Source: a virus. From it: 64,000 nt of DNA. The stretch is from the IMG/VR virus record IMGVR_UViG_3300009164_000061, positions 1 to 64,000 of that record. One strand, given 5' to 3'. Shown one piece after another: positions 33,333-63,850 of this stretch (its first letter is position 1; every line of letters starts with the position of its first letter). The position numbers and the translations under genes are program-made. The notes beneath the pieces are model-generated. The model was not told where the DNA came from and searched no databases. It saw only the letters and a list, made by a program, of their open reading frames with translations.

Positions 33333-34445
33333 ATGACCCTTGTTAAAACATTTGAAGAATTTAAAAAACCGTCAGTAATTGATGAAGCTCGTGAAGTTAC
33401 AAAGATTTCTACTGCTAAACCAGAGGCTGGCGAGTTAAAAAGATGGGATATAGTATTACGTAGTGGAAAAGAAGGATCAGTTGACGAAGCCAATCCATCT
33501 AATACAATATTACGTGAACTGGCCCAAGACCCAGATTTTAAAAATTGGTGGAATGCCCCAGCTGATGAAACTAAAGATGGAATTAAAATCCCAAATCATA
33601 ATTTATTGGCTATTATTGATTTAGGCGTTCAAAATAAAACTAATTTAATTGGACAAACTGTTTTTAAAGCACAGGTTGCCTTTTTACCTTACGCGACAGA
33701 TCAAATCGAAGGATCTGGCGGAATGTGGGTTGCATACGATGTTACAAAAGTTCCACATAGAGCAAGTGTTGCAGTTGAAGGCTCAGCGGTTGAACTTGCT
33801 GCTTGGAATAAAACAGATTTGCCTAATTTAAGAGTTATTAATGATAATAAAAGAATAATGGCGCTAGGTAAAAATGGAAAACCTATAGAATCAAATTTAG
33901 TTAGCCCATCATATGTTGAAAAAAATGCTGCACAGACTAGCTCAGCGAATGTGGCAACCGTACCGGGTTCAACAACTGCTACAACTCCAAGTTCAACTAG
34001 CTCTACAACTCCAGGTTCAACAACCACGCCAAGTTCAACTAGCGCTACGGCTAACACCTCAGCTGGATTAAAAGCAACCCAAACTTTTGACCAAAAAATT
34101 CAAGATCTACAGAAAAAAATTATTGCTAGTGGAAATGCCGAAGCAGCCAAAGCAATTAATGATAAGGGCGGAGCTATTGGTAAATACGGAAGTGGAACAG
34201 CTAAAGCAATTGCAATTTTAGTTGGTACTCCAAATACTCCAATTACTGAAATTACTCCAGAAATAGCTGCTAAATTAGATGCAGCCCTAAAGAATGTAAC
34301 TCCTGAACAAATTGCTGCAGTTAAAGCGCCTGCTGCAGTTAAAGCGCCAGCTGCTAATCAAGCAAAAACTGCAAATTCAGTAGCTACAAATAAAGTTGCA
34401 CCTGCAACCACGGTAACCACTAAAAAGGGCAACTTAACATTTTAA
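33333..34445 (+). CDS. Probable internal head protein with capsid-targeting N-terminus (370 aa)
   Basis: The start MTLVKTFEEFKKPSVIDEA contains KTFEEF and a predicted cut after IDE (residue 18). A soluble domain follows to about residue 200 (RWDIVLRSGKEGS; NLLAIIDLGVQ; GMWVAYDVTKVPHRASVAV). A Thr/Ser/Pro linker of repeated PGSTT and PSSTS units (210-245) leads to a C-terminal helical region (QKIQDLQKKIIASGNAEAAKAINDKGGAIG) resembling a peptidoglycan-binding helix bundle, weakly. Function is unknown. Confidence 0.6.
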   Translation: MTLVKTFEEFKKPSVIDEAREVTKISTAKPEAGELKRWDIVLRSGKEGSVDEANPSNTILRELAQDPDFKNWWNAPADETKDGIKIPNHNLLAIIDLGVQNKTNLIGQTVFKAQVAFLPYATDQIEGSGGMWVAYDVTKVPHRASVAVEGSAVELAAWNKTDLPNLRVINDNKRIMALGKNGKPIESNLVSPSYVEKNAAQTSSANVATVPGSTTATTPSSTSSTTPGSTTTPSSTSATANTSAGLKATQTFDQKIQDLQKKIIASGNAEAAKAINDKGGAIGKYGSGTAKAIAILVGTPNTPITEITPEIAAKLDAALKNVTPEQIAAVKAPAAVKAPAANQAKTANSVATNKVAPATTVTTKKGNLTF

Positions 34446-34460
34446 AAATAAAATCTATTT

Positions 34461-35459
34461 ATGAATATTTTAAATTACGCGAGAGGCTTAGAGCTATCAA
34501 CCTATAATAAAATCAACGAGTCTGCAATTTTAGAAGCAGATGCTAATCCAACCAAAGCCCTTGAGCAAATAAAAAGCGGAAAGGCCGGAGGCACATATGC
34601 AGCTCAATGGAATCAAGTTCAAACTGCGGTTGTTGCTGGCCATGAAGCTGACCAACCTACCGGAAAGGTAATGGTTAAACACGATAATGGTGCTGATATG
34701 GTTACAGTTAATTGGAAAATTACAAACGGTAAAGTTGATCTTTCAGTAGACGGTGCAGCAGTTGCCGCAACCGGTCAAATGGTTAATATTGAAAAGCTTT
34801 CAACATACGACCCAAAGGGTAAGATGAATGAATTTATTGCTGCACTAATTACCGTATCTATTGAAAAATTTGGAAAGACTTGGGATAAAGCTCACATGGA
34901 TTGGGTTAATGCTCAAATCAATAAGTGTAAAGCATTGGGTGGATTTTATGGTAGAATTGGCGATTATGCAACTAGCCCATGTTTAGTCGGAGATGGAGAC
35001 ATTTTTACACCATGGATAAATCCGTTAAGTGGAGGTGATCGCCCAACCCAAATCGATGCAATTGGAAAGGTTAATAAAATTGCAGGATCTGCCGCAACTG
35101 ATGCTCAAGTTAATATGATACTTCAAGTAATTAATTTAAAGACTCAAGAATCAATAATCAGCCAGACTGATGAAAAGGCAATTCATGGACTTTACATGTT
35201 AATTTCCCCAAAATATACAATAGGCCAGTTGCAACGAATGTATGATGCAATTGCCGGAGCTTCATCTGGCGGGATATTTTATACCCTGAAAAGCAGCGGC
35301 GCAACCAACAATATTTCGGTAACTGATAAAGCAAAATTTGCTCAATGGTGCATTGGAGTTAGAGGAAATCAGCACAGTGCAGATATGCTTGCGGAATACC
35401 GCTTTGACATAGCCTCATACACTGCTAGTTTAGCTGCAATTAAAACATCTTTAGTATAA
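34461..35459 (+). CDS. Probable internal head protein (332 aa)
   Basis: N-terminus MNILNYARGLELSTYNKINE is a long, atypical capsid-targeting sequence; the cut would be after INE (residue 20) or ILE (24). The rest is soluble alpha/beta; residues 150-185 have two cysteines (NKCKALGGFYGRIGDYATSPC). The C-terminal half is helical (YTIGQLQRMYDAIAGASSGG). It lies 15 bases after the previous CTS protein and shares the same late transcript. No family is recognised. Confidence 0.55.
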   Translation: MNILNYARGLELSTYNKINESAILEADANPTKALEQIKSGKAGGTYAAQWNQVQTAVVAGHEADQPTGKVMVKHDNGADMVTVNWKITNGKVDLSVDGAAVAATGQMVNIEKLSTYDPKGKMNEFIAALITVSIEKFGKTWDKAHMDWVNAQINKCKALGGFYGRIGDYATSPCLVGDGDIFTPWINPLSGGDRPTQIDAIGKVNKIAGSAATDAQVNMILQVINLKTQESIISQTDEKAIHGLYMLISPKYTIGQLQRMYDAIAGASSGGIFYTLKSSGATNNISVTDKAKFAQWCIGVRGNQHSADMLAEYRFDIASYTASLAAIKTSLV

Positions 35460-35460
35460 T
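35453..35460 (+). promoter_or_regulatory. Non-late promoter box AGTATAAT
   Basis: TTTAGTATAATAG overlaps the end of the previous gene and lies six bases before the bS21 ATG. Confidence 0.45.
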
Positions 35461-35466
35461 AGTCCC

Positions 35467-35652
35467 ATGCTAATTATAAATGTAAAAGAAAATGGAACTT
35501 TAGACAGGGCTCTTAAAGTTTTAAAACGCAAATTTGAAAAAACTGGTACGGTGAAGCAATTACGTTCACGAAAGGAATTTATAAAACCAAGTATAAAACG
35601 TAGAGAAGAGATTCGTAATGCGGAATACCGTCAATCTCTAAACAATGATTAA
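35467..35652 (+). CDS. rpsU: Ribosomal protein bS21 (61 aa)
   Basis: MLIINVKENGTLDRALKVLK followed by RKFEKTGTVKQLRSRKEFIKPS and a basic tail (IKRREEIRNAEYRQS) is a full-length bS21 of the Bacteroidota type. bS21 sits near the 3' end of 16S rRNA on the 30S subunit; in Bacteroidota it is linked to hiding the anti-Shine-Dalgarno sequence. A phage copy could replace the host protein and bias initiation to phage messages. It overlaps the Nudix gene start by eight bases. Confidence 0.92.
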   Translation: MLIINVKENGTLDRALKVLKRKFEKTGTVKQLRSRKEFIKPSIKRREEIRNAEYRQSLNND

Positions 35653-36112
35653 AACATTTTCTAATTTCTTGGCAGAAAAAAAGAAATATTCAGATGCGGC
35701 TGGTGTAGCTATTCTTTATCAAAAAAAGATTCTACTAGTTCATCCAACCAATGGCAGTTGGACCAAACCAATTATGGGAATTCCAAAAGGCAAAATTGAA
35801 GTTGGAGAAGAAATTCTTGATGCTGCGCTTAGAGAACTTCTTGAAGAAACTGGAATTAGGCTCTCACCTGATAAATTAGAGCCGGCTGTTGAAACTGTTC
35901 AGGTTTTTGATAAGGCCGGCGACTATAAAAACTCACTTCATTATTTTATTTGTAGAATCTCAGAGCTTTCTGAAATTGGACTAGATGGATTGACTATTCC
36001 AAAGAGTCAATTACAGCCAGAAGAAATAGACTGGGCCGGCTTTATTGATGTTAAAGACGCCTATTCAAAGGTATCTAGAGCACAATTAATAATTTTAGAT
36101 AGAATTTCCTAA
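35645..36112 (+). CDS. Nudix hydrolase with capsid-targeting N-terminus (155 aa)
   Basis: The start MIKTFSNFLAE closely matches the T4 internal-protein leader (MKTYQEFIAE); the cut would fall after E11. Residues 49-71 hold a complete Nudix box: G49, E55, R63-E64, E67-E68 and G70 in the G-x5-E-x7-REUxEExGU pattern. Nudix enzymes cleave nucleoside diphosphate derivatives such as ADP-ribose, NADH or capped RNA; the substrate cannot be read here. Translation is coupled to bS21 by overlap. Packaging would deliver the enzyme at the start of infection (inference). Confidence 0.85.
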   Translation: MIKTFSNFLAEKKKYSDAAGVAILYQKKILLVHPTNGSWTKPIMGIPKGKIEVGEEILDAALRELLEETGIRLSPDKLEPAVETVQVFDKAGDYKNSLHYFICRISELSEIGLDGLTIPKSQLQPEEIDWAGFIDVKDAYSKVSRAQLIILDRIS

Positions 36113-36163
36113 AACTCCTTCACCATTTTTAGTAAAATAGCTAAACAACAAATTTTATATAAA

Positions 36164-36724: not shown

Positions 36725-36742
36725 TTTTTTTAAATTTTTATT

Positions 36743-36767: not shown

Positions 36768-36771
36768 GTTT

Positions 36772-44143: not shown

Positions 44144-44710
44144 TTATCGAGTAGTTTTACGAGGGTTTAAAGATTGAGGCATTTTACCAGTTTCCATATT
44201 AGTATCTTTTTTAGAACCATTTAACACTCCATTGTCTGGAATATTATTTGTCTTTGCAAATACCTTTTTCTTATTCATAGACTCTTCAGTTTTCTGTGCA
44301 GATTTTAAAGCACCTGGAGCTGGATAACCTTTTTCTCCTGGCTTTGCAGGTTTTTCTCCACGCTTTCTTTTTGCATTAATATTATCCCATAAACCTTTTT
44401 TCTTTTCGGAAATTTCTAGGCTTGCTAATAGTGCATCAGACTCGTCTGCAAAACTTTGAGCAATATCTTCTCCAAATTCGTCATAAATTTTTGTAATAAG
44501 ATCATTTTGTAAATCTTTAATTCGGCTTGCCGTTTCATACTTATTGGAGTGTTGATCAATTTCAACTGGCTCATTTGTATAGTTACTAGCTAATTCAATT
44601 AGATCTTTTGAAATATTATGGTAAAAAGAATCCGATTTTGTATTTGGTGCTTGGTGGAATTCATCGTAACTCTCTTCAAAGCTTTCAAATAGTGCAATGT
44701 AATTTTTCAT
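44144..44710 (-). CDS. Probable internal head protein with capsid-targeting N-terminus (188 aa)
   Basis: MKNYIALFESFEES has the K-x-Y-x-x-x-F pattern and possible cuts after LFE (9) or FEE (13). A helical domain follows. KKGLWDNINAKRKRGEKPAKPGEKGYP (about 105-130) is a basic motif that recurs in phage structural proteins. The C-terminal 60 residues are basic and disordered, suited to DNA binding in the head. A GATAAATAA late box lies 25 bases upstream on the minus strand. Confidence 0.65.
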   Translation of the reverse strand: MKNYIALFESFEESYDEFHQAPNTKSDSFYHNISKDLIELASNYTNEPVEIDQHSNKYETASRIKDLQNDLITKIYDEFGEDIAQSFADESDALLASLEISEKKKGLWDNINAKRKRGEKPAKPGEKGYPAPGALKSAQKTEESMNKKKVFAKTNNIPDNGVLNGSKKDTNMETGKMPQSLNPRKTTR

Positions 44711-47720: not shown

Positions 47721-47923
47721 AGAAAGTATTAAGAATTGAACCGTATTGTTATAAAACATGGTCACCAGTCTTTAAGCAAATTGGCTTAATTTCCCCGTAT
47801 ATTACATATAATCCAGAAGGTCACTTTATTGAATCTGGAGTTAGCTCTTGGCTATTAATAGTAAGTTTTAATATACTCATTTGGGATTTTGGATTCAGGA
47901 TCTATTATGATCTTGAATATTAG
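47717..47923 (+). CDS. Small hypothetical protein (68 aa)
   Basis: Overlaps the GNAT gene by four bases (ATGA) and runs head-on into the lysin gene with a four-base overlap. A hydrophobic stretch (SSWLLIVSFNILIWDFGF) could be a membrane helix. No family is recognised. Confidence 0.5.
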   Translation: MKKVLRIEPYCYKTWSPVFKQIGLISPYITYNPEGHFIESGVSSWLLIVSFNILIWDFGFRIYYDLEY

Positions 47924-49254: not shown

Positions 49255-49619
49255 TATATTCCCTGATCTTTTTTAGTATCCTCATTAAATTTCTTTATTG
49301 CATTGGCTGTTTCTGGTCCAAAATAACCGTCTACTCCAAATTTCGGAAGTGGATAACCTAAGAAAATTAGGGCAGTTTGAATATTTTCAACCATCTTTGA
49401 ATACTGCATTTCTCCTAATTTTTGAACCGGTACAGCCTTATTTGCTCCTGCGAAGTCTTCAAGGGTTTTATAAAATTCAGAAATTTTATCGTCAATTAAA
49501 TCCTGATTATCGGTATTGCCCTGCTTCTTGACTGTGCCTTCTTCGCTTTTACCAGTTAGCCAGTCTAAGAAACCGCCTTCATTAAGATTTGAATTAAATT
49601 CTGTAAATGTCTTAATCAT
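49254..49619 (-). CDS. Peptidoglycan-binding protein with capsid-targeting N-terminus (121 aa)
   Basis: MIKTFTEFNSNLNEGG is a clear capsid-targeting leader (cut after LNE, 14). Residues 75-120 form a PG_binding_1 domain: ENIQTALIFLGYPLPKFGVD and YFGPETANAIKKF. It is upstream of and overlaps the M15-GH19 gene, so the two may act as a pair. A GATAAATAA box lies 38 bases upstream. Confidence 0.8.
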   Translation of the reverse strand: MIKTFTEFNSNLNEGGFLDWLTGKSEEGTVKKQGNTDNQDLIDDKISEFYKTLEDFAGANKAVPVQKLGEMQYSKMVENIQTALIFLGYPLPKFGVDGYFGPETANAIKKFNEDTKKDQGI

Positions 49620-49668: not shown

Positions 49669-50421
49669 ATGTCTGAATCAATTAAACGAGTTGTGCTGAA
49701 TGGATTTCGATACTATCAAGTATCTGACTCAACTGGAATACTTGGAACTTTCCCAAGTGTAACCTCTGTACTTGGAGATACCTCTGATAAATCTGGACTT
49801 GATGCTTGGAGAAACCGTATAGGTCACCAAAAAGCTGATCAAATCGGCCAAGATGCAGCTAACCGAGGAACTGTGATGCACCGGTTATGCGAAATTTATC
49901 TTAATCTGCCGCAGTCGATGTCTGCAAAAGACAGACTTGAGGACACTTTGTCCTTGGCCAGAATAGATGATGAAATTGATCAATTTGATAATCGGGCAAA
50001 AATTGTGGGAGGCATGCTCTTCTATAATTTTATAAAATCAAATTCATTTGACGAAATTAAACGAGTAATTGCTCAAGAGCGATTCTTATGGACGGCTAGA
50101 GATGGTGGATTTGCTGGCACAGTTGATAATGTTTCTGAATTAATAACTGGCGACCATGCAATTGTAGATTTTAAGACCGCTCGTAAACCCAAGGAAGAAA
50201 AATGGATTGAAGATTATAAGCACCAAGTCGCAGCATATTCGGTTGCAGTTTGGGACCGTATGCAGGTTAAGACAGTTACTTGTAGAATTTGGATTTCAAA
50301 CGAATTAAACTTAGCTCCACAACACTTTAGAATGGACTCTAGTGAAATGAGAGAATACTATTTTAAATTCAGAGAAAGATTGGCAGAGTTCTATCGAAAG
50401 AATCCGCCAATTGTGATTTAG
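49669..50421 (+). CDS. PD-(D/E)XK nuclease, Cas4/RecB-like exonuclease (250 aa)
   Basis: FAGTVDNVSELITGDHAIVDFKTARKPKEEKWIEDYKHQVAAYSVAVWD contains the D-x(n)-DxK core and the QxxxY motif of the RecB/Cas4-type nucleases. The opening YYQVSDSTGILGTFPSVTSVLGD and GTVMHRLCEIYL fit phage relatives. It probably processes DNA ends in recombination. It ends head-on against the 654-aa minus gene with a four-base overlap. Confidence 0.85.
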   Translation: MSESIKRVVLNGFRYYQVSDSTGILGTFPSVTSVLGDTSDKSGLDAWRNRIGHQKADQIGQDAANRGTVMHRLCEIYLNLPQSMSAKDRLEDTLSLARIDDEIDQFDNRAKIVGGMLFYNFIKSNSFDEIKRVIAQERFLWTARDGGFAGTVDNVSELITGDHAIVDFKTARKPKEEKWIEDYKHQVAAYSVAVWDRMQVKTVTCRIWISNELNLAPQHFRMDSSEMREYYFKFRERLAEFYRKNPPIVI

Positions 50422-52382
50422 ACAATCTCAGTCCTGTCAGTTATCTTTCTTAAAAGATCTAATCTAACTGGAGTAGGTCTTTCAGCTCCACCAAATGTTC
50501 GTAAGTAAATAAACGGCTGATTTGCAGTATTTCTGGTTGTATAATCGCATTTAGATAAAATACCCCAATTGTTTTGGTGATTTGCGATATAGTAGTGATC
50601 TCCAGCTCTTGCCATTAATTTATCCTGTTCTGTAACTGGTTCAAGGCCTAGTGCAATTAATCCCATTCCAACAAATGGACCTTCAACCATTTTACCAGTA
50701 ACTACATTAACTAGCATAATATTACGCGGATTACTTATTAATTCCTGCGGGCTTTCAACTGACCTTGTTGCTCTGCCTAGTCTTTCAATCGCGACAAATA
50801 CTGGAACTCCAGCGGCTCCTCTAAGAGAGGCCTGTTGAGGTTCTGCTAGAACTACAAATTTTGCAAAATTACCAGTTCTGATTTTCTTAAGCAAGTCAAG
50901 ATTCGCCAAGGTTTGGCGATTATTAACAGCCTGTTTTAATTCAGCTCCAGTAAAATCAAGTTTACCAAATAGGGCTTTGTCTGCAGTTCTGGCCAAATTT
51001 TGAGAACGATCTCTTTCAATACGTTCTCTTTCTGCTTGAGCTTCCGCATCTCGACGCTGTTGAACTACTTCAGGGCTTAATCTATTAAGAATAAAGAGTT
51101 TACCGGCTGGGGTTAGGTTAACTCTATCTAGATCAGGAATATTTTCAATATTTACTTTAACCCATTGTGATTTATCAGTAGTTGTCCGAGTGTCATTTGC
51201 ATCACCTGGGGTACGTTCGCCAGCTTCAATTCGAATAACATCTGATATACCAGCAGCAATATAAGTCCCGTTGCGTACATCAACTACTTGCCTAATTGGT
51301 AAGCTATCGTAGCCTGCATCATACAGGTAGCTTTTAACTACAATAAAGTCGCCAACTTGCCATTCTGCATCTGGGTCTGCGCCGAATTGTCTAATACGAG
51401 AAGCAAGGCGTTGTCGAGTTTCAGCCTCTTCACGAGTTCTACGCTCTCTATCTTCGATTGCTTGGCGCTCTGCTCTTTCTCTGTCAAGACGCTGCACTTC
51501 TGATCTAGCTGCATTAATTGAGCTAAATCTCTCATTTGATATACGGCCGTCTCGACCTAATGACGCTAAGTACTCATCATCTAACTTTGTTAAAAAAGTA
51601 TCAGGTAGAATTGAAAGAAGTTCATCGTCAATATCAAATCTGTCCGGTTTTGTGTTATTAAATCCGATTTGGCGTTCAATAAATCTCTCAGCTACATCAA
51701 TTTTTGATTGAGTACTTATTCCTTTATCCATTGCCATCCAACTTCCTGGACCAATTATTGCTAGCGCATCATCAACTGATGGCGTTCCATCTGGATTTGC
51801 TTTATAGTCCAACAATGATCCCCAAGCTTTGTCTTTTTCAGTAGTTCCGCTTGAATTTGATGAAATATAACCTGCATATTTTAATAGTGTTCTGTACAAT
51901 TTGTAACCTAAGCCTGTACCTCTAAGAGCTGGTCTAATTCCGTCATTTGGGAAATGGCTGCGTTGAAATGAGCTAGGCTCTTCAGTTCTAAGATAAACAG
52001 CCGTACCTGATGGATATACGTCTCTCCATTTACCAAAATCCTCTTTCATTCGGCCTTCATCAATTTGCTTGAGTTCCTTGAGTAAATCAACAATAGGTTG
52101 TGGAAATCTTGGATAATAATCTCTGGTATTACTAGGCTTTTCCATTGTAATCTCAATTCTAGGAACCTGTTTTAGTGCACGAGTTAAATCTGCTGCAACT
52201 TCTGAGTAACTTCTACGAACTGGCTGATTTGCAAGCTGTTGTCTACGAGTAACTGTTTCCTGTCTAGCTCTACCAATATGACTTCCAGCTAATCGCTCAG
52301 GGCGTTTAACCCCCATTTCATCAACTAGCCCACCCTGATTAATATTCGATTCATTAATTGCTTCTATAAAAGACTTTGCCAT
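50418..52382 (-). CDS. Large probable internal head protein with GNAT-like segment and capsid-targeting N-terminus (654 aa)
   Basis: MAKSFIEAINESN gives a leader cut after INE (11). Residues 120-180 (PSGTAVYLRTEEPSS, then RPALRGTGLGYKLYRTLLKYAGYISS) look like a GNAT acetyl-CoA-binding motif A but other GNAT motifs are not clear. Two Arg/Glu-rich coiled coils lie near 295-345 and 450-480. KOW-like or SH3-like beta segments occur between (WQVGDFIVVKSYLYDAGY). It is the largest CTS gene here. A late box lies 25 bases upstream. Confidence 0.6.
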   Translation of the reverse strand: MAKSFIEAINESNINQGGLVDEMGVKRPERLAGSHIGRARQETVTRRQQLANQPVRRSYSEVAADLTRALKQVPRIEITMEKPSNTRDYYPRFPQPIVDLLKELKQIDEGRMKEDFGKWRDVYPSGTAVYLRTEEPSSFQRSHFPNDGIRPALRGTGLGYKLYRTLLKYAGYISSNSSGTTEKDKAWGSLLDYKANPDGTPSVDDALAIIGPGSWMAMDKGISTQSKIDVAERFIERQIGFNNTKPDRFDIDDELLSILPDTFLTKLDDEYLASLGRDGRISNERFSSINAARSEVQRLDRERAERQAIEDRERRTREEAETRQRLASRIRQFGADPDAEWQVGDFIVVKSYLYDAGYDSLPIRQVVDVRNGTYIAAGISDVIRIEAGERTPGDANDTRTTTDKSQWVKVNIENIPDLDRVNLTPAGKLFILNRLSPEVVQQRRDAEAQAERERIERDRSQNLARTADKALFGKLDFTGAELKQAVNNRQTLANLDLLKKIRTGNFAKFVVLAEPQQASLRGAAGVPVFVAIERLGRATRSVESPQELISNPRNIMLVNVVTGKMVEGPFVGMGLIALGLEPVTEQDKLMARAGDHYYIANHQNNWGILSKCDYTTRNTANQPFIYLRTFGGAERPTPVRLDLLRKITDRTEIV

Positions 52383-54792: not shown

Positions 54793-55596
54793 TTAGTTGA
54801 CGTAATTATTAAGAATTGTCTCAAGATCGTCAGTCTTTTCAAGAGTAGAGGAAGGCTCGTTATAATATAGTTCATACCGATCTTCTAAAAGGTCAGCTGC
54901 ATTTATTTCATTTTTTAGTTTAAGCAGTCTAATACCAAACCAGTCAGCTTCCATTTCTTGACGTTCATCGTATTGATTTGCTCTATCGTATTTAGAGGCA
55001 GAGTGATCCAATTCAAAATGCGCTATTTCGTGAGCCTCAATTGCAAGTATGTGATCACTTGTTAAGTTTTGACTCTCAATTATTACTCCGTCAATATAGA
55101 TAGTTTTTGAGGAAAGATCTGCAAATGCAATTCCTAAATAGTTAAAAATCTTTGCACAATCTTTATATAGAGAATCCTCTGGCCAAAGGGCTATAACCGT
55201 CCAGTCTAGATCAAGTTTACTTTTCCAGGCAGTAGGCTCTGCTCCTTCTGATAAATTATAGCGTTTCATCTTTGAAGCGCGTTGACCGGTTAGGTCTCTC
55301 CATAACTCTCGTACATCAGGTTGAGCTAGAGTATCCGCCTGTACCATTGAATAAAATTGATTATCTGAGTTCTGCATCATTGCGAACCATTCTTCTAGCG
55401 TTGGTTTCTTAGGTAGTGCGGCTATTCTAGGCTTTAACCTACGGAACATTGGAAACAGTTCAGTTTCATATTTGTCACCAGTATGAGGGTTTCTACCAAA
55501 TTTACGATTAATACCAAGATCGCCTAATTGCTTAAGAGGTCTTGGATGCTCGATATTTTCAGATACCCATGTATTAAAGTTTACAATCGTTGCCAT
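54793..55596 (-). CDS. Zinc metallopeptidase (HExxH) with capsid-targeting N-terminus (267 aa)
   Basis: MATIVNFNTWVSEN fits the capsid-targeting pattern, cut after VSE (13). The catalytic motif HEIAH is at 189-193, within IEAHEIAHFELDH, and a downstream EMEADWFGIRLL supplies the likely third ligand, as in ImmA/IrrE-type and related metallopeptidases. In prophage regulation ImmA/IrrE enzymes cut repressors. Here packaging suggests cleavage of a host protein right after DNA entry (inference). Confidence 0.75.
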   Translation of the reverse strand: MATIVNFNTWVSENIEHPRPLKQLGDLGINRKFGRNPHTGDKYETELFPMFRRLKPRIAALPKKPTLEEWFAMMQNSDNQFYSMVQADTLAQPDVRELWRDLTGQRASKMKRYNLSEGAEPTAWKSKLDLDWTVIALWPEDSLYKDCAKIFNYLGIAFADLSSKTIYIDGVIIESQNLTSDHILAIEAHEIAHFELDHSASKYDRANQYDERQEMEADWFGIRLLKLKNEINAADLLEDRYELYYNEPSSTLEKTDDLETILNNYVN

Positions 55597-55646: not shown

Positions 55647-56090
55647 ATGATTCATAAATATCAACAATGGATTGAAGAATCTGAAAAAGTTGAAGCAAAC
55701 GAACAGGTGCCAACCGCTACTCCAGAAGTACCTGCAGCAACGGATGCAGCAGCTTTGCCGGTTACAACTGAAACGCCAGCCGCAACTACTCCAGAAATTC
55801 CATCTGAGCCAGAAATCGTATCAGCTGAGTCTGAAATTGAAGAATATCAAAATTTAGATAAAGCGCGCAGAGAAGCAATTAAAGCATTTAAAGAAAAACA
55901 GGGAGAATTCTTGGAAATTCCAGAAGACATTCGTAAAAACCCAGTTGAAGAAGCTGATAAAACAAAAGTTGAAGAGCTAAAGACCTCTTTAATTGAGCTT
56001 AATAAAACAATGAAAGCTGCAATTACTGCTTGGAATAAATTTAACTCAATGGCTCTTGGTATTGAAGATGATGAAGACGTTGAACCATAA
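55647..56090 (+). CDS. Acidic probable internal head protein with capsid-targeting N-terminus (147 aa)
   Basis: MIHKYQQWIEESEK fits the pattern with a cut after IEE (11). Residues 18-60 are Pro/Thr/Ala-rich and probably disordered; residues 65-140 form an acidic coiled coil (IEEYQNLDKARREAIKAFKEKQGEF; VEELKTSLIELNKTMKAAI). It heads a plus-strand run of three CTS-type genes. No family is recognised. Confidence 0.65.
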   Translation: MIHKYQQWIEESEKVEANEQVPTATPEVPAATDAAALPVTTETPAATTPEIPSEPEIVSAESEIEEYQNLDKARREAIKAFKEKQGEFLEIPEDIRKNPVEEADKTKVEELKTSLIELNKTMKAAITAWNKFNSMALGIEDDEDVEP

Positions 56091-56105: not shown

Positions 56106-56357
56106 ATGTCAATTATAAAGAATTTTAACGATTTTCTTAACGAAAGCTGGCATCCATATGATGCATACGAAACTGGCAAATCAAATTGTTGCGGTGCACC
56201 AATCATGCAAGGCGGAATTTGCTCAGACTGTAAAGAACATCGTGAACCTGAAGAAGAGGAAGAATATTCAGAAGATCAAATGACCGATCATGAATTTGAA
56301 CCTCGGAATCATGACGCTGAACCGGGCAGCGGGCTACCTAATGTTGAAGGATTTTAA
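56106..56357 (+). CDS. Zinc-ribbon probable internal head protein (83 aa)
   Basis: MSIIKNFNDFLNES is a good capsid-targeting leader (cut after LNE, 13). NCCGAPIMQGGICSDCKEH (about 27-46) forms a CxxG/CxxC zinc ribbon. The C-terminal half is acidic. Start and neighbours suggest co-packaging; it overlaps the next gene by one base. Confidence 0.65.
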   Translation: MSIIKNFNDFLNESWHPYDAYETGKSNCCGAPIMQGGICSDCKEHREPEEEEEYSEDQMTDHEFEPRNHDAEPGSGLPNVEGF

Positions 56358-57145
56358 TGCAGTACTTATTAGAATATAGCGATTGGACAAACAATCGAGA
56401 ACGTGAACTTAATGAAGATTGGGAATGGGACGATTTAGCTCATCTTGGAGTTGATGTGATTAGTGCAATATCAGATACTGTAGTTCCAGGATCAGGCAGT
56501 GTTATTGATATAATTCATGCTATTTCCTATTCAATTCAGGCAAGTTTTGCAAATACTGAAGCTGAAAAGGTTTCTTTAAATATGCAAGGTTTAATAACTC
56601 TAGCCTCAGTTGTGGCAATTAGTGGAGCTCAAGCACTGGCAGTTGCACTAAAGGCTGAAATTAAAATTGTAATGGCTGCATTTACTGAGGGTCTATCTAA
56701 TCCAACTGCTTTTAAATTAGCAAAAGCTGCTGCTCCCGAAGTTTCAGCTAAACTTAAAACTCTGCTTGGAATGGTTAGCGATATTGCCAAATGGGTTGGT
56801 CAAAAAATTCGAGAATTTAAAAATTCAGAATTAGGCGCATGGGTTATAAGTAAATTCGGCTCAATTGAAATAGCTCTTACTAAGATAAGTACCTTAATAA
56901 CTCAGGGTATTCCAGCCTCAATTAATAAATTTCTACAATTTTTAGCAAAACTTAATCCGTTAAAATTAGGTGCGCATGGATCAACTGGTGAAACTGGAGA
57001 ACTTGTATTAAAAGCCGCTGCTAAAAATTATGCAACCGCTAAAGCAACCAATACTACAATTGCTGCAATTACGAATACAACAAATCAAACTAAAAAAGAG
57101 GTTGCCAGTCTTACTAAGAAACCTCAAGTCAAACCTAGCACATAA
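56357..57145 (+). CDS. Pretoxin-like hydrophobic internal protein (262 aa)
   Basis: MQYLLEYSDWTNNRERELNED holds a longer leader with a possible cut after LNE (20). Residues 30-110 (HLGVDVISAISDTVVPGSGSVIDIIHAISYSIQ; GLITLASVVAISGAQALAVAL) resemble the hydrophobic pretoxin spacer of polymorphic toxins and the region at 120-190 of the 791-aa protein at 30930. The rest is amphipathic helices and a Thr/Lys-rich tail. It may insert in membranes after ejection (inference). Confidence 0.55.
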   Translation: MQYLLEYSDWTNNRERELNEDWEWDDLAHLGVDVISAISDTVVPGSGSVIDIIHAISYSIQASFANTEAEKVSLNMQGLITLASVVAISGAQALAVALKAEIKIVMAAFTEGLSNPTAFKLAKAAAPEVSAKLKTLLGMVSDIAKWVGQKIREFKNSELGAWVISKFGSIEIALTKISTLITQGIPASINKFLQFLAKLNPLKLGAHGSTGETGELVLKAAAKNYATAKATNTTIAAITNTTNQTKKEVASLTKKPQVKPST

Positions 57146-59221: not shown

Positions 59222-60394
59222 TTAACCTCGGCCTACTTGACCTTCTCCCTGCTTTTTACCACCAGTTCCGCCGCCAGCTGGAACATTTGGGGCTCCTGTC
59301 CAAGTTTGAACACTTTGAACTCTATCAAACCATTCATTAAGATTATAGGCGCTAGCTTTAGACAGAAGTCCATTTTTAATAATATCAGTATATCCTGCAA
59401 AAACTGCAGCTCCGTCATTTCCAAATTCAACTGGAGATTTGGTTGGAGAAACTGCCTCTGCTATTTTGGTGAATACTGCGGTTAATCGTTTTACACCTTC
59501 AGGTAAAAGCTTGAATTTTTGAGACTTCTCGTTGTACGAAATCAATATTTTAAAATCGGCAGAGCTTAATCCTGTCCAGGCAGCACCAACATCCGGAATT
59601 GGATTATTGACTAACATACGTTTACCTTTAACGAAGTTAGCCGCACCATTCGCAATTGCGGTAGTTGCAGCAGCTGAGTCCTTTCCATTAACGTATCTTG
59701 TAAAATAGTCACCTGCTACTGGGTCATTTTTTGCAATATGATCCGGCACTCCAAGCGCATTTAATAGATTAATTGAAATAGCTGCAGCAATCATATTTGA
59801 AATTGAGCCTAATTGGCCAGGTTTTGCCCAATAATAACTAAAACCTCTTGCGTCAGCTTCAGCTACTGGATTGCCTAATGTAAATTTAAGCACAAAGTTT
59901 TGACAATTACCAAGATAAAATTTAAAACGAGTAACCATATCGGCTTGGGAATTTGCAAATCTAACGAGTGCAAGCATTCCATTATTTGAAGCAGTTATTG
60001 TGATTGGTCCAGTTAGGTCAGCCTTTTTAAGAAAGATTGTACCTGTTTCAAGTAGTTTTCGACCGTTGATCTCTAACATATCGTCTCCAGGTTTTGCAGT
60101 CTTTTGAGTTGAATCTAAATTAATTGTGATTCGAGTTTTGGCCTCAGCTCCACCAAATTTACTACCGTCCGTATCAATAAATCTTAATGATGCAATGTTT
60201 TGCATTGTTAATGTATAGACAATATCCTTTTTTATTCCAATATTTGCAGCTAATTGATCAGTAATATTTGATGCACTAGTTGAGGACGAAATGAATGCTA
60301 TACCATCAACTGCTGGAGCAGTAGTAGATAAAGGAGAAGCTTCAGTTGCCTCGTTTATCCAACTGGCATAGCTTTTAATTAATTGATTTTTCAT
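59222..60394 (-). CDS. Probable internal head protein with capsid-targeting N-terminus (390 aa)
   Basis: MKNQLIKSYASWINEAT gives a leader cut after INE (15). The following 375 residues are soluble alpha/beta (IVYTLTMQNIASLRFIDTDGSKFGGAEAKTRI; FKFYLGNCQNFVLKFTLGNPVAEADARGFSYYW; PDVGAAWTGLSSADFKILISYNEK) with a Gly-rich tail (GGGTGGKKQGEGQVGRG). I recognise no enzyme family. A GATAAATAA box lies 29 bases upstream. Confidence 0.6.
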   Translation of the reverse strand: MKNQLIKSYASWINEATEASPLSTTAPAVDGIAFISSSTSASNITDQLAANIGIKKDIVYTLTMQNIASLRFIDTDGSKFGGAEAKTRITINLDSTQKTAKPGDDMLEINGRKLLETGTIFLKKADLTGPITITASNNGMLALVRFANSQADMVTRFKFYLGNCQNFVLKFTLGNPVAEADARGFSYYWAKPGQLGSISNMIAAAISINLLNALGVPDHIAKNDPVAGDYFTRYVNGKDSAAATTAIANGAANFVKGKRMLVNNPIPDVGAAWTGLSSADFKILISYNEKSQKFKLLPEGVKRLTAVFTKIAEAVSPTKSPVEFGNDGAAVFAGYTDIIKNGLLSKASAYNLNEWFDRVQSVQTWTGAPNVPAGGGTGGKKQGEGQVGRG

Positions 60395-60423
60395 TATATT
60401 ATAGAGTAATTATTTTCTAGGTA

Positions 60424-60432: not shown

Positions 60433-60459
60433 TTTTGTACTATTTGATATTTCAGGGTT

Positions 60460-60801
60460 TTAAAGTACATCAGCCACTATGATAAATTCAATCCAACCTA
60501 AGTCATTTCCGCTTATGTCAGATAGACTTTCAGTATACCTATCCCATTCAGCTAAATCTTCCAAATTATCAAGGTCTATCCATTTATCCATATACTGATT
60601 GGTTTTGTTCTTTAGTACCCGAATTGCAGCATTAACTTCAGGATCACCGCCCCATTCATCAATCATTTTATCTAAACGGTTGTCAAAAGGTTCTTTGTCA
60701 GCTAAACCTAGATCCCTTAACTGGTTAAGATCATCATCTGGATCCAGATTAGCCTCAGATTCCTGGAGTATAAATTGATTAAATGGTTTAATTTGTCCCA
60801 T
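60460..60801 (-). CDS. Small acidic probable internal head protein with capsid-targeting N-terminus (113 aa)
   Basis: MGQIKPFNQFILQESE has a clear leader (cut after LQE, 14). The remainder is acidic (DPDDDLNQLRDLGL; IDLDNLEDLAEWDRY) and ends in a hydrophobic strand (LGWIEFIIVADVL). No family is recognised; an inhibitor or DNA mimic is possible by charge. A late box lies 19 bases upstream. Confidence 0.65.
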   Translation of the reverse strand: MGQIKPFNQFILQESEANLDPDDDLNQLRDLGLADKEPFDNRLDKMIDEWGGDPEVNAAIRVLKNKTNQYMDKWIDLDNLEDLAEWDRYTESLSDISGNDLGWIEFIIVADVL

Positions 60802-60820
60802 TTTTAAAGAGATATTTTGA

Positions 60821-60829
60821 TTATTTATC
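60821..60829 (-). promoter_or_regulatory. Late promoter box GATAAATAA
   Basis: Minus-strand GATAAATAATC 19 bases before the 113-aa gene start. Confidence 0.6.
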
Positions 60830-60903
60830 TAGAGTCGACCAAATTTAAAAAAGGTTGGTACTATAAACTCAAGTAATAATTTTTTAAATTAAACCAAAAA
60901 AAG

Positions 60904-61212: not shown

Positions 61213-61232
61213 GTTTAGTAACTCACAACAGC

Positions 61233-61523: not shown

Positions 61524-61526
61524 TTA

Positions 61527-61814
61527 TTACTTTTTACCAAGTTGGCGTTTTACTTCAGCTCTAACGCTTTCCATCTTTTTTGCATAAGTTGGATTCTTTT
61601 TACGGTTAAACACAATTTGCTGATTAATACTGCCTGTAATTTTTTGCATGTTCCTTTTTCTGGTTCTGATTAACCAGCTGGCCAAGGCCTTGACCCCAAG
61701 CGTCTTGAATTTACCATTTGCATCAGGTGCACCAGAGTCATGCCAGTCCGGCGAGCCCTTTGGTTTTTTGGCTTCAGTAATTAAAAAATCGTTATAATAT
61801 AATACGTGTTGCAT
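61527..61814 (-). CDS. Basic probable internal head protein with capsid-targeting N-terminus (95 aa)
   Basis: MQHVLYYNDFLITEAKK fits the leader, cut after ITE (14). The rest is very basic: KKPKGSPDWHDSGAPDANG followed by KALASWLIRTRKRNMQKI and a KRQLGKK end. A DNA-condensing or DNA-binding internal protein is likely. It lies nine bases downstream of the DUF5824-like gene. Confidence 0.65.
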   Translation of the reverse strand: MQHVLYYNDFLITEAKKPKGSPDWHDSGAPDANGKFKTLGVKALASWLIRTRKRNMQKITGSINQQIVFNRKKNPTYAKKMESVRAEVKRQLGKK

Positions 61815-61823
61815 CGTTGTAGA

Positions 61824-62342
61824 CTACTTTTTCTTTGATTTTCTGACCCTTTGTGCCAGATCCTTGTCGGCCTTGCCCCAAGTTCCACTTGACTTTGTAA
61901 CAAATGAATTTACTCTGGCATGGGCCCAGGCAACCTGGCTCTGACCTGGACGATGACCCGTTTTCCAGGCAGCCATACCTCGATTAAACACCTGTTTAAG
62001 AATACCAAACGGCATGCCGTATTTTTTGGCTTTTGCTTTTAGTGAAGTATCTGCTGAACTTGATTCATTAATCTCTGCCCATTCCCCAAATCTCCAAACT
62101 TGGGTCTCATTCATTTCACGGTTTACCTCCTTGGTAAACGGGCTCTTGACCTTTGAGCCTTTGAATTTGCCAGATTTATCTAGATCACCGGGCATTGGTT
62201 TATAGGCTGATGAGTCTGAATCGCTCATCTCGGCTTGACGCTTCATTTGAGACTCTTTCTTCGCCTTTTGTTTTGAGTCTAGACCTTTAAAATATGGACC
62301 TGACTTGCTGGTCACTTTTTTCTCGTTAAGATTCATCTTCAT
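61824..62342 (-). CDS. DUF5824-like basic phage protein (172 aa)
   Basis: The C-terminal half (KAKKYGMPFGILKQVFNRGMAAWKTGHRPGQSQ, then WAHARVNSFVTKSSGTWGKADKDLAQRV) matches a domain I know as DUF5824 from large phages. The N-terminus MKMNLNEKK has a short leader-like LNE (7) but without the aromatic positions, so CTS status is doubtful; RFGEWAEINES near residue 88 looks like an internal protease site. Basic, possibly DNA-associated. Confidence 0.7.
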   Translation of the reverse strand: MKMNLNEKKVTSKSGPYFKGLDSKQKAKKESQMKRQAEMSDSDSSAYKPMPGDLDKSGKFKGSKVKSPFTKEVNREMNETQVWRFGEWAEINESSSADTSLKAKAKKYGMPFGILKQVFNRGMAAWKTGHRPGQSQVAWAHARVNSFVTKSSGTWGKADKDLAQRVRKSKKK

Positions 62343-62350
62343 TCTTTTTT

Positions 62351-62935
62351 TTACCAGAAACCTGGGTAAGTTTTACCGCCCCAAAGATGGGCATAACGGT
62401 TAATACGGCAAGCCCAGTAACCTGCACTCATGCGGTCCGTTTTAAGATGGCACTGGTGGCGGGCTGCAAAGCTTTTACGAGCAGCCGGATTGCTTACTTT
62501 TGCAGTAAGCCCGCCGTGAACATCGCCAAATGCAATTTTCTTGACTTTACCAGTGGCCGGATTCTTTACATAGACATGGTACTTCTTGGCTCCGCCGCGT
62601 TGAGGTTTACCAAGTTCAACGGTTTTACCCTGATACTCGGCCTCAAAAATTGGAAAGTCAAGTAGCACAGTCTGGCCCTCAAATTGGGCAACTCGACCAA
62701 GATCAGTATCCCTAAATAGTTCTCGATCAACTCCGGATAATTCAATCTCTCCAGCCTGCCAAACCCTGCGAGCCTCAACAATTAAGCGCTGATGGGCAAG
62801 ACTACCGGGTCTAAAAATAGATTCGCAAACCGAGAGGCCAGCGGTTAGGTGGTACTGTAGGGATTCTTGTAGTACCTCAGCTTCAGCTGTTTCAGTATAG
62901 GCTTCAGTTATCCAAGCCTGGAATGGTTTCAACAT
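62351..62935 (-). CDS. Probable internal head protein with phage-specific C-terminal domain (194 aa)
   Basis: The start at 62935 (MLKPFQAWITEAYTET) is chosen because it gives a leader cut after ITE (11); a longer frame to 63040 lacks it and overlaps the upstream gene. The C-terminal 80 residues (KKYHVYVKNPATGKVKKIAFGD; NPAARKSFAARHQCHLKTD; SAGYWACRINRYAHLWGG) form a conserved phage domain with two cysteines, unnamed to me. It probably travels with the DUF5824-like protein. Confidence 0.65.
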   Translation of the reverse strand: MLKPFQAWITEAYTETAEAEVLQESLQYHLTAGLSVCESIFRPGSLAHQRLIVEARRVWQAGEIELSGVDRELFRDTDLGRVAQFEGQTVLLDFPIFEAEYQGKTVELGKPQRGGAKKYHVYVKNPATGKVKKIAFGDVHGGLTAKVSNPAARKSFAARHQCHLKTDRMSAGYWACRINRYAHLWGGKTYPGFW

Positions 62936-63009
62936 TTTCTTTTTTTCTTTTTTCTCGGCCACGCCCAAGGGGGTAACCGTGGCGGTGCAGGCACGCCCAA
63001 TTTTATCCG

Positions 63010-63384
63010 CTAAAATCGCCATCGGGTTTCCAGTGTCCAATAAATTTGGTTTTCAGTAAATCCCATCTCTGCCATGCGTTTTGCAAAGGGTTCAAATACT
63101 ACACCTAGCAGATCGGGTCTAAACCGCTTAAGCGTTGCTGCAACTGCTTTTGCTCGGCGAACCAATTTTGCCCTGTCCGTAATTAGTTTAGACATTGATA
63201 CCGATTTACTTACTGGGTTTGCGGAGTCTATTAGGTTTCTGGCACGTAACCAGTCCTTGTCTTCTGGGTAATGCGCGTCAATTTGGCGGTCGGGTGTTGC
63301 AGCCGCTAGGCCAAGTTCGGCCATATCAGCATATTCCTGATATAGATTTTCAAAAATGTGGAATGGTTTAATATACTGTTTCAT
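63010..63384 (-). CDS. Probable internal head protein with capsid-targeting N-terminus (124 aa)
   Basis: MKQYIKPFHIFENLYQEYA has K-x-Y-x-x-x-F and possible cuts after IFE (12) or YQE (17). The rest is basic and helical (KLITDRAKLVRRAKAVAATLKRFRPDL) ending in an aromatic tail (QIYWTLETRWRF). It lies four bases after the 153-aa gene on the same strand. No family is recognised. Confidence 0.65.
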   Translation of the reverse strand: MKQYIKPFHIFENLYQEYADMAELGLAAATPDRQIDAHYPEDKDWLRARNLIDSANPVSKSVSMSKLITDRAKLVRRAKAVAATLKRFRPDLLGVVFEPFAKRMAEMGFTENQIYWTLETRWRF

Positions 63385-63388
63385 TTGA

Positions 63389-63850
63389 TTATAGTTTATT
63401 TAATTGAGGTAGAGTTTCGCCGGTTTCCACGAGGTACCAGGTATTGCGGTTAACAACGTGCAATACCTCAGCTCCGTGTCGACGCGATTCAGTAAGAAGA
63501 TAATCCAGGATTAATTTTTCATTTTTACGACTGGCCTCAAAATCAATGGTTGAGCCGTATGCTCTGGTGTCTAGCCCTTTGACCCGTGCAATCTGGTCTG
63601 ACCAAGTATCCCATTCCGGGTCCATGGGAGAAGGCCAATCCCCAAAAAATGCCCAGTTAATAAAGGATTTACCAGTATCTATCCCAATCTCTAGGATACC
63701 GTATTTAATGGTTGCCTCGATTAGTTTAAGACCGTTGGCAAGGCCTAATTGATAGAGCTCAAGTTGATCAATAATCCGTTGAGCCTCATCGGAAAGCCCA
63801 ATAGACTCATTTAGTGCAAAATTATGAAATTGACTAATATACTTCTTCAT
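63389..63850 (-). CDS. Probable internal head protein with capsid-targeting N-terminus (153 aa)
   Basis: MKKYISQFHNFALNESI is one of the best leaders (cut after LNE, 15). The body is alpha/beta: AQRIIDQLELYQLGLANGLKLIEATIKYG, then WAFFGDWPSPMDPEWDTWSDQIARV and a C-terminal GAEVLHVVNRNTWYLVETGE. No family is recognised. A TATAAATAACC late box lies four bases upstream of the start. Confidence 0.65.
   Translation of the reverse strand: MKKYISQFHNFALNESIGLSDEAQRIIDQLELYQLGLANGLKLIEATIKYGILEIGIDTGKSFINWAFFGDWPSPMDPEWDTWSDQIARVKGLDTRAYGSTIDFEASRKNEKLILDYLLTESRRHGAEVLHVVNRNTWYLVETGETLPQLNKL

What the first reader, a model, noticed from the sequence alone, without database searches (positions are those of the whole stretch)
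33333..63850. About 17 proteins share a T4-type capsid-targeting N-terminus: a packaged, injectable arsenal
Seen: proteins starting at 33333, 34461, 35645, 44710(-), 49254(-), 49619(-), 52382(-), 55596(-), 55647, 56106, 56357, 60394(-), 60801(-), 61814(-), 62935(-), 63384(-) and 63850(-) begin with K-x-[FY]-x-x-[FW], a few residues, then [LIV]-x-E followed by S/A/K/G/N. Examples: MIKTFSNFLAE, MSIIKNFNDFLNE, MLKPFQAWITE, MAKSFIEAINE. Apart from the leader the proteins are unrelated. Known: T4 internal proteins IPI-III start MKTYQEFIAE, which sends them into the prohead and is cut after E by gp21. Inference: this phage packages many proteins, including a Nudix hydrolase, a lysin, an HExxH peptidase, a GNAT-like protein and zinc-ribbon and pretoxin-like proteins, and ejects them with its DNA. 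The set is far larger and more enzymatic than in T4.
Basis: partly seen in the sequence, partly recalled or inferred. Interest (0 to 1): 0.92.

Follow-up and report, generated by a model that had tools for sequence, protein, structure and literature searches.

The report
Phage proteins tagged for capsid packaging
A large bacterial virus appears to tag about a dozen unrelated proteins in this stretch, and some 25 in larger related genomes, with one short, removable address label like the one phage T4 uses to load proteins into its head and inject them with its DNA.

Summary
The shared N-terminus is real and not chance. A leader profile trained only on relatives (G004, G011, G008) marks 11 of 120 contig ORFs at score >=10 (0.7 expected). 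The same profile, never shown T4, ranks gp61.1, IPIII, IPII and IPI at 1, 2, 3 and 5 of 275 T4 ORFs.

The contig is 78 kb of a larger T4-type phage. Relatives of 217-271 kb have 23-28 such ORFs, a gp21-type protease and a gp23 capsid protein. That protease is fused to a scaffold-like domain of 9-14 repeats whose core YSEYLAEN resembles the leader core FxxF[IL]NE. Leader genes carry a T4-like late-promoter motif. The leader is conserved as peptide, not as DNA. Nudix homologues exist with and without it.

Best reading: a T4-type capsid-targeting system, much enlarged, with several enzymes among mostly unknown cargo. Packaging, cleavage and ejection are inferred, not shown. The GNAT and pretoxin labels found no support. 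New variant of a known kind.

The parts
33333..34445 (+). leader protein (370 aa), MTLVKTFEEFKKPSVIDE|A
   Evidence: score 15.5; late-promoter-like motif 29 nt before ATG; leader kept in a G018 counterpart at 41% identity
34461..35459 (+). probable leader protein (332 aa), divergent leader
   Evidence: own score 2.1; counterparts in G018 11.4 and G002 17.9
35645..36112 (+). leader + Nudix hydrolase (155 aa), MIKTFSNFLAE|K
   Evidence: score 19.6; Pfam NUDIX 1.1e-13; homologues with and without leader
44144..44710 (-). possible leader protein (188 aa), variant MKNYIALFESFEE|S
   Evidence: own score 1.4; motif 34 nt before ATG; a 46-residue part follows a strong leader in G004; uncertain
47920..49254 (-). 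leader + endolysin-like protein (444 aa)
   Evidence: score 19.0; PHROG endolysin 7.1e-19 over residues 235-437; relatives keep leader and C-terminal part while the part between differs, Amidase_2 in G002
49254..49619 (-). leader + peptidoglycan-binding domain (121 aa)
   Evidence: score 22.7; PG_binding_1 3e-7; motif 47 nt before ATG
50418..52382 (-). leader protein of unknown fold (654 aa), MAKSFIEAINE|S
   Evidence: score 14.6; residues 1-53 at pLDDT under 50; motif 33 nt before ATG
54793..55596 (-). leader + HExxH metallopeptidase-like protein (267 aa)
   Evidence: score 9.4; PHROG metallo-protease 7.1e-8; Pfam M78 19.0 bits, under its cut-off of 22; motif 15 nt before ATG
55647..56090 (+). 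leader protein (147 aa), MIHKYQQWIEE|S
   Evidence: score 11.1; motif 26 nt before ATG
56106..56357 (+). leader + CCGA/CxxC zinc-ribbon-like protein (83 aa)
   Evidence: score 23.3; cysteines read by eye, no family hit
56357..57145 (+). possible leader protein (262 aa)
   Evidence: score 7.8; no Pfam or PHROGs hit
59222..60394 (-). leader protein (390 aa), MKNQLIKSYASWINE|A
   Evidence: score 17.5; motif 38 nt before ATG
60460..60801 (-). leader protein (113 aa), MGQIKPFNQFILQE|S
   Evidence: score 20.5; motif 28 nt before ATG
61527..61814 (-). leader protein (95 aa), MQHVLYYNDFLITE|A
   Evidence: score 9.5; the domain is the C-terminus of a leader protein in G018
61824..62342 (-). DUF5824 protein with an internal leader-like site (WRFGEWAEINE|S from about residue 83)
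   Evidence: interior score 17.6; Pfam DUF5824 1.3e-16
62351..62935 (-). leader protein (194 aa), MLKPFQAWITE|A
   Evidence: score 20.4; G004, G011 and G008 homologues start without a clear leader; in G018 the domain is fused behind a weaker one (8.8)
63010..63384 (-). possible leader protein (124 aa)
   Evidence: score 5.4; G002 counterpart 5.9
63389..63850 (-). leader protein (153 aa), MKKYISQFHNFALNE|S
   Evidence: score 16.9; leader kept in a G018 counterpart at 22.5% identity; motif 13 nt before ATG
14666..16636 (+). T4-type large terminase, used to find relatives
   Evidence: PHROG terminase large subunit 8.1e-50

Best explanation
The leaders are capsid-targeting propeptides of the T4 internal-protein type. 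About 13-15 unrelated proteins of this contig, and some 25 in relatives with large genomes, are made late in infection and recruited by a 10-20 residue leader (aromatic-x-x-aromatic, then [LI]-x-E) to the scaffold core of the growing head. A gp21-type protease then cuts after the Glu; the mature proteins stay in the head with the DNA and most likely enter the host with it. In this lineage the protease is fused to a scaffold-like domain of 14-residue repeats (core YSEYLAEN) that resemble the leader core, so the leader may dock by imitating one scaffold unit. Shown by computation: the leader, its enrichment, its kinship to T4's, peptide-level conservation, the late-promoter-like motif, and protease and capsid genes in relatives. 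Inferred: late expression, packaging, cleavage, ejection, the scaffold role of the repeats, docking by mimicry.
For: Blind recovery of T4 gp61.1, IPIII, IPII and IPI at ranks 1, 2, 3 and 5 of 275 ORFs. Work on the IPIII leader places targeting mainly at residues 4 and 7 and processing at 8 and 10 (PMC9026906, passages); leaders such as MKSFKQFLNE of G002 match those positions. Enrichment at >=10 in three records not used for training: G000 11/120 (0.7 expected), G002 25/193 (0.3), G018 26/333 (2.4). S77 protease over the Pfam cut-off in 5 of 14 relatives' records, Gp23 capsid protein in both genomes tested, GEL[ND]HP and SSR motifs aligned with T4 gp21. 9 or 14 repeats in the fused protease of five genomes; no other protein of these genomes has more than 3 of the motif. 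Motif ATAAATA before 32 of 36 leader genes with an intergenic gap, against 85 of 358 others. Same codon for same residue 0.549 against 0.518 expected. Nudix homologues with and without the leader. Leader residues at low confidence, as if unstructured, in two models.
Against: No protease in this contig, so for this very phage it is inferred from relatives. In orthologue pairs the leader aromatics are hardly better conserved than aromatics elsewhere (248/372 against 2773/4309), the leader K is less so (54/135 against 1949/4233), only the Glu is clearly better (128/186 against 1860/4193), and in 94 of 186 pairs only one partner passes the threshold. The Nudix counterparts in G004 and G011 keep F-x-x-F but lack the [LI]xE site (scores -1.9 and 6.2). 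The best single interior matches to the leader core in G018, G004, G011 and G008 are not in the scaffold-like domain. The capsid gene and the terminase lack the late-promoter-like motif. No virion data exist here.
Confidence: 0.83

Rival explanations
1. The leader is a head- or core-assembly tag: the proteins join the prohead and are cut, but serve assembly or DNA condensation and are not injected as effectors.
For: IPIII affects T4 head assembly, and T4 core proteins are cut by the same protease (PMC9026906, passages). The leader core resembles a scaffold-like repeat. Most cargoes have no recognised family.
Against: Nudix, endolysin-like, lysozyme, CHAP, amidase and 2H phosphoesterase cargo is not expected of assembly factors. 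T4 Ip1-3, with the same kind of leader, are injected inhibitors of restriction enzymes (PMC12373910, passages).
Confidence: 0.3
2. The leader directs proteins elsewhere (another virion part, a phage compartment or the membrane) and is not a capsid propeptide.
For: Peptidoglycan hydrolases among the cargo could belong to tail or lysis. No virion data.
Against: The profile finds T4's capsid-targeting leaders; 84 of 85 scored leaders have the Glu of the [LI]xE site; the leader core resembles repeats fused to the prohead protease. None of the 13 leaders has a hydrophobic stretch like a Sec signal (10-residue Kyte-Doolittle maximum -0.43 to 1.19, against 3.39 and 2.99 for two signal-like starts of the same contig).
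Confidence: 0.08
3. A DNA- or RNA-level 5' module (duplicated start region, translation enhancer) happens to encode similar peptides.
For: Some leaders are near-identical in sequence, and a shared upstream motif exists.
Against: Codons for identical residues agree little more than codon usage predicts (0.549 against 0.518). The same peptide pattern recurs in T4.
Confidence: 0.02
4. Chance plus selective reading: many N-termini are K-, F- and E-rich.
For: The literal pattern fits only 8 N-termini in the contig, and 4 of 17 named proteins score low. PTm1 and MaF61 lie below expectation, pT24 and Cr30 near it.
Against: 11 observed against 0.7 expected in the contig, 25 against 0.3 in G002, 26 against 2.4 in G018.
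Confidence: 0.01

Closest known systems
Phage T4 internal proteins IPI, IPII, IPIII and their capsid-targeting sequence
   Same: Short N-terminal leader, aromatics at positions 4 and 7, [LI]xE cut site, unrelated mature parts; gp21-type protease and gp23-type capsid protein in relatives
   Different: 23-28 ORFs >=10 per large relative instead of a handful; several enzymes among the cargo; protease fused to a repeat-bearing scaffold-like domain
T-even internal-protein families found by their leader (at least 10 reported, as stated in PMC12373910)
   Same: Leader as the only shared part; injected anti-restriction proteins (passages)
   Different: Those are variants among related T4-like phages; here the set is large within single genomes of distant jumbo phages
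SPN3US (and phiKZ) ejection proteins
   Same: Many proteins in the head of a jumbo phage, some cut by a gp21-related protease (PMC5694885, passages)
   Different: Their propeptides are mostly over 100 residues; here 10-25 residues
Sphingomonas phage PAU (related by terminase, 33% identity)
   Same: 7 of 295 ORFs, unrelated past the leader, share a leader of the form MK[STG]xxxLYExKLNE; S77 protease present
   Different: A different leader consensus and fewer proteins; I found no report of it in my searches
KVP40, P-SSM2, HTVC008M, Cr30
   Same: S77 protease and some T4-type leaders (12, 4, 2 and 1 ORFs >=10; HTVC008M and Cr30 read to 140 kb only)
   Different: Smaller sets; for HTVC008M and Cr30 the >=10 count is near expectation

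Membership tests
T4-type capsid-targeting (internal protein) system | N-terminal 10-20 residue leader, aromatic-x-x-aromatic then [LI]xE | tested here: met
   13 of 17 named proteins score >=9; the same profile recovers T4 IPI-III
T4-type capsid-targeting (internal protein) system | Leader shared by otherwise unrelated proteins | tested here: met
   no cross-hits past residue 20 among 18 candidates
T4-type capsid-targeting (internal protein) system | gp21-type (S77) prohead protease in this phage | tested here: inconclusive
   0 matches in the 78 kb fragment; present in 5 of 14 relatives' records and, by similarity and alignment, in G018, whose terminase is 84% identical
T4-type capsid-targeting (internal protein) system | gp23-type capsid protein in the lineage | tested here: met
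   Pfam Gp23 9.4e-48 and 2.5e-42 in G008 and G004, the two tested; not seen in this contig
T4-type capsid-targeting (internal protein) system | T4-like late-promoter box before the genes | tested here: met
   ATAAATA before 32 of 36 leader genes with a gap, 85 of 358 others; 46 of 76 sites start 25-32 nt before ATG. That the motif is a promoter here is inference
T4-type capsid-targeting (internal protein) system | Cleavage after Glu in the prohead | not testable with these tools
   needs mass spectrometry
T4-type capsid-targeting (internal protein) system | Ejection into the host | not testable with these tools
   needs infection experiments
SPN3US/phiKZ-type ejection proteins | Long (mostly over 100 residue) propeptides on cut head proteins | tested here: not met
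   predicted leaders end within about 10-25 residues; feature taken from PMC5694885 (passages)
Sec signal peptide | Hydrophobic core near the N-terminus | tested here: not met
   10-residue Kyte-Doolittle maximum -0.43 to 1.19 in 13 leaders, against 3.39 and 2.99 for two signal-like starts in the contig; no signal-peptide program was run
Acb1 anti-CBASS nuclease (cargo in G002 and G018, not in the window) | 2H phosphoesterase fold with two HxT motifs and Acb1-family sequence | tested here: inconclusive
   both HxT motifs; 23 of 23 members hit Pfam Acb1, 22 hit 2_5_RNA_ligase2 with a better best E; G002 member under the cut-off, 20.1 of 27 bits; 2H fold clear, Acb1 7t26 Z 12.2 over 131 residues at 2.7 A, tied with other 2H enzymes

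The most novel reading that the evidence does not exclude
These jumbo phages run a modular import route into their own heads. The leader is a detachable copy of the scaffold's 14-residue repeat unit, so any protein that gains it joins the core, is freed by the protease fused to that scaffold, and is injected. Some 25 cargoes (among them a Nudix hydrolase, a peptidase, peptidoglycan hydrolases, an Acb1-like 2H phosphoesterase, a nucleotidyltransferase and a lysozyme) act before any phage gene is expressed, and related lineages such as PAU have their own leader code.
Probability: 0.45. Interest if true: 0.88.

Novelty: new variant of a known kind. Interest (0 to 1): 0.76.

Why it matters
Which proteins phages inject besides DNA is mostly unknown, because they must be found one by one in virions. 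Here a leader that can be recognised in sequence names some 25 candidates in a single genome, several of them enzymes and one related to an anti-CBASS nuclease, in phages known from metagenomes. It also suggests a simple physical rule, imitation of the scaffold repeat, for how cargo enters a T4-type head; this can be tested and could serve to load proteins into phage heads.

Tried and rejected
Megablast of 12 kb of the window against annotated phages: no match. Chance was tested with interior start codons and rejected. A DNA-level module was rejected by the codon test. A Sec signal was rejected by hydrophobicity. Leader conservation in orthologue pairs was expected to be clearly higher and was not, apart from the Glu (pairs G000-G002 and G004-G011 were dropped before that count). 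The GNAT reading of 50418 found no support: no Pfam or PHROGs hit, no Foldseek match at E<=0.001, but the model is weak (pTM 0.35), so the fold is open. 30930 (791 aa) was considered: a G008 relative has a leader (12.9), its own start does not fit (4.6), so it is left out. PTm1 and MaF61 lie below expectation and pT24 near it. PF03420 in MaF61: no match. A second motif LxxLG[LIVFY] is enriched behind the leader (11 of 85 against 16 of 705) and was not explained. An in-frame TGA reported in G018 terminase proved to be the ordinary stop. Nine searches for earlier reports of such a large leader-tagged set found none (open-licence PMC papers only, no preprints; some searches listed only the top of 19, 161, 53 and 31 papers). 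PMC12373910 reports the leader as a search handle in T-even phages.

Limits of the statistics: genes were called mechanically (longest frames, no ribosome-site model); for each ORF the best in-frame start in the first 45 codons was scored, and the null did the same from interior starts. G004, G011 and G008 gave the training set, so their counts are biased. G000, G002 and G018 are test records but share some gene families with them. G001 (terminase identical to the window's) was left out of the expectation table. In one search, of 1552 ORFs, 120 under 60 residues and 115 with scores 5-10 were left out, and some of the six genomes are close kin. The PAU pattern was written after looking at PAU.

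Full report
What the window is. The 64 kb window lies in an IMG/VR virus record of 78,376 bases with a T4-type large terminase (window 14666-16636; PHROG 8.1e-50). A terminase search kept the best 80 of 151 relatives, 78 loci. Among annotated phages the best-ranked hits are uncultured huge phages, Sphingomonas phage PAU and Tenacibaculum and Flavobacterium phages. Relatives fetched whole: G004 (253 kb), G011 (253 kb), G008 (217 kb), G018 (271 kb), G002 (128 kb), G013 (124 kb) and G001 (89 kb). Four records of 270-271 kb hold a terminase 84% identical to the window's, so this contig is probably about 30% of a jumbo genome (inference; completeness of those records is not known). A host in Bacteroidota is inferred from the terminase relatives; few genes have a Shine-Dalgarno-like site (about 5-6%).

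The observation. From 39 strict hits of G004, G011 and G008 I built a score for K-x-[FY]-x-x-[FWY], a gap of 0-8 and [LIV]-x-E-x. Applied to the contig it gives >=10 to 11 of 120 ORFs (expected 0.7) and >=12 to 10 (expected 0.4). Other records at >=10, observed and expected: G002 25 of 193 and 0.3; G018 26 of 333 and 2.4; G004 28 of 336 and 1.5; G011 23 of 302 and 1.7; G008 23 of 268 and 3.9; G013 4 of 99 and 0.3 (the expectation draws interior start codons 500 times). 13 of the 17 named proteins pass 9. Four do not (56357, 63384(-), 34461, 44710(-)); 34461 is backed by counterparts with a leader, 44710(-) in part. In six records (G000, G002, G004, G008, G011, G013) 127 candidates of score >=9, including five window proteins added by hand and some evident false positives such as a sigma factor, fall into 66 groups once 22 residues are removed.

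Is it T4's signal? The score never saw T4. It ranks gp61.1 first (19.0), IPIII and IPII next (17.9 each) and IPI fifth (10.4) of 275 T4 ORFs; rank 4 (11.2) is thymidylate synthase, a false positive. I did not look up where Alt, with its 7-residue propeptide (PMC9026906), falls. T4 gp2, the DNA end protector, scores 6.6 with the start MAIFQIINES. The review PMC9026906 (passages) gives residues 4 and 7 of the IPIII leader as the main targeting positions, 8 and 10 as the processing positions, and L/I-X-E as the gp21 site. Leaders such as MKSFKQFLNE (G002) match position for position. T4's own capsid protein loses a 65-residue propeptide (PMC9026906), and that site reads FGSFLTE|A.

Protease, capsid, scaffold. 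Pfam S77 (PF03420) is not in the 78 kb fragment. It is over the cut-off in 5 of 14 relatives' records, in T4, PAU, PTm1 and pT24, and in P-SSM2, HTVC008M, KVP40 and Cr30; it has no match in MaF61 and only one below the cut-off in the huge phage LR756502. The neighbouring gene in G004 and G008 is a Gp23 capsid protein. The motifs GEL[ND]HP and SSR align with T4 gp21. Unlike T4's 212-residue protein, these are 660-677 residues. The added part holds 9 (G004, G008, G011, G018) or 14 (G013) units exactly 14 residues apart, consensus [GN]-I-x-Y-S-E-Y-[LV]-A-E-[NK]; some units depart from it, e.g. Q for E. No other protein of these five genomes has more than 3 of the motif. A leader-trained score of the 8-residue core gives the fused protease the most interior hits in each of the five genomes (7 of 46, 8 of 52, 8 of 58, 10 of 50, 17 of 37), the next protein having 2-4; still, the single best interior hits of four of them lie in other proteins. 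PTm1 and pT24, also with long proteases, lack these units. That this part is the scaffold, and that the leader docks by imitating it, is my inference.

Regulation and level of conservation. ATAAATA lies within 70 nt before 75 of 136 leader genes and 160 of 1181 others; with an intergenic gap of at least 45 nt, 32 of 36 and 85 of 358; 46 of 76 sites start 25-32 nt before the ATG (six genomes, some close kin). The protease-scaffold gene has it in G004, G008 and G018; the capsid gene behind it does not (G004, G008), nor does the window's terminase. It resembles T4's late-promoter box TATAAATA (recalled). Codons for identical leader residues agree in 0.549 of comparisons against 0.518 expected from codon usage (58 leaders without gap): selection acts on the peptide. 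In orthologue pairs the Glu is better conserved than other Glu (128/186 against 1860/4193), the aromatics hardly (248/372 against 2773/4309), the K less (54/135 against 1949/4233), and 94 of 186 pairs show the leader in one partner only: the leader is often gained, lost or altered, or the start was miscalled.

Modularity. Of 54 loci encoding Nudix relatives I inspected 50 (four fragments left out). Those close to the window's carry leaders of varied spelling (MIKTFSNFLAE, MKIKAFSEFLAE, MKVKNFNKFINES), while L267-L275 begin directly at the Nudix domain; a few (L256, L257, L266, L276, L277) and the G004 and G011 counterparts have starts that fit badly. The 62351 domain has a leader in G000 and G002, no clear one in G004, G011 and G008, and sits behind a weak one (8.8) in G018. 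The endolysin-like protein keeps leader and C-terminal part while the part between differs; in G002 it is Amidase_2.

Cargo. Window, 18 candidates: Nudix, peptidoglycan binding and DUF5824 pass a Pfam cut-off; PHROGs, given 10 of them, adds endolysin and metallo-protease. Relatives, 20 leader proteins scanned of 34 picked: nucleotidyltransferase, phage lysozyme, CHAP and Amidase_2 pass. Most cargo thus has no recognised family. G002, and G018 by its start, also encode a 2H phosphoesterase with leader. Of 53 loci with relatives, 23 were aligned, G002's own included: all 23 match Pfam Acb1 (best 3.7e-8) and 22 match 2_5_RNA_ligase2 (best 1.5e-10). In the PDB their profile ranks Acb1 first but weakly (E 0.004). 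The model (pLDDT 84) is a 2H fold with residues 1-19 at low confidence; Acb1 7t26 scores Z 12.2 (rmsd 2.7, 131 aligned), tied with other 2H enzymes. Among the 42 loci listed many have other short starts ending in [LI]xE, such as MKKLIEVLKE, which hints at further leader codes.

Breadth. PAU: 7 of 295 ORFs share starts of the form MK[STG]xxxLYExKLNE, with 1 interior match in 66,471 residues, unrelated past it. KVP40 12, P-SSM2 4, HTVC008M 2 and Cr30 1 ORFs >=10 against 2.4, 0.0, 0.6 and 1.1 expected; T4 6 and 1.1; PAU 8 and 2.6; pT24 4 and 1.7; PTm1 1 and 3.4; MaF61 0 and 2.5. Cr30's single strong hit (24.2) is followed by YYYHGTS, which recalls ADP-ribosyltransferases (recalled, not tested).

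Known and new. Leader-tagged injected proteins are known in T-even phages, with at least 10 reported and Ip1-3 acting as anti-restriction proteins (PMC12373910, passages). SPN3US has 8 cut proteins among about 50 in the head, with mostly long propeptides (PMC5694885, passages). My nine searches found no report of a T4-type leader on some 25 proteins of one genome, nor of the repeat-bearing protease-scaffold. Hence: new variant of a known kind. Packaging, cutting and injection remain to be shown by experiment.

Noticed in passing
window 11520-11886 (-): A phage-encoded tmRNA, found by ARAGORN and by Rfam RF00023 (113.7 bits).
   Followed up: no
window 17656-18282 (+); contig 68382-69332 and 71134-71862 (+): Three sigma-factor-like proteins by reading (no family search run); the first, behind the terminase, could be the late sigma that reads the ATAAATA motif.
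   Followed up: no
L091, L090 (G004 107444 and 93309); L132, L133 (G008 165764 and 188076): Leader-like sites inside proteins, preceded by a second [LI]xE-like site (e.g. LAEGRV..FDQFLNE), as if one precursor were cut into pieces.
   Followed up: partly
NC_000866 18966-19130 (-): T4 gp61.1, annotated hypothetical, has the best leader score in T4 and may be an unrecognised internal protein; one paper listing it also calls it hypothetical (PMC12895675, passages).
   Followed up: partly
NC_000866 65416-67490 (-): In T4 the internal-protein genes ipII and ipIII lie next to the lysozyme gene e and the Nudix gene nudE; in the window an endolysin-like and a Nudix protein carry the leader themselves.
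   Followed up: no
window 47920, 60460, 63389 and relatives: A motif LxxLG[LIVFY] within residues 11-60 is enriched in leader proteins (11 of 85 against 16 of 705) with no explanation.
   Followed up: partly
L307-L351: Acb1-like homologues of other phage lineages start with short segments ending in [LI]xE (MKKLIEVLKE, MIKLKDLLTE), possibly other leader codes.
   Followed up: no
window 30930-33305 (+): 791-aa protein whose relatives share a start like MxYVISADQYF; perhaps a divergent leader.
   Followed up: partly
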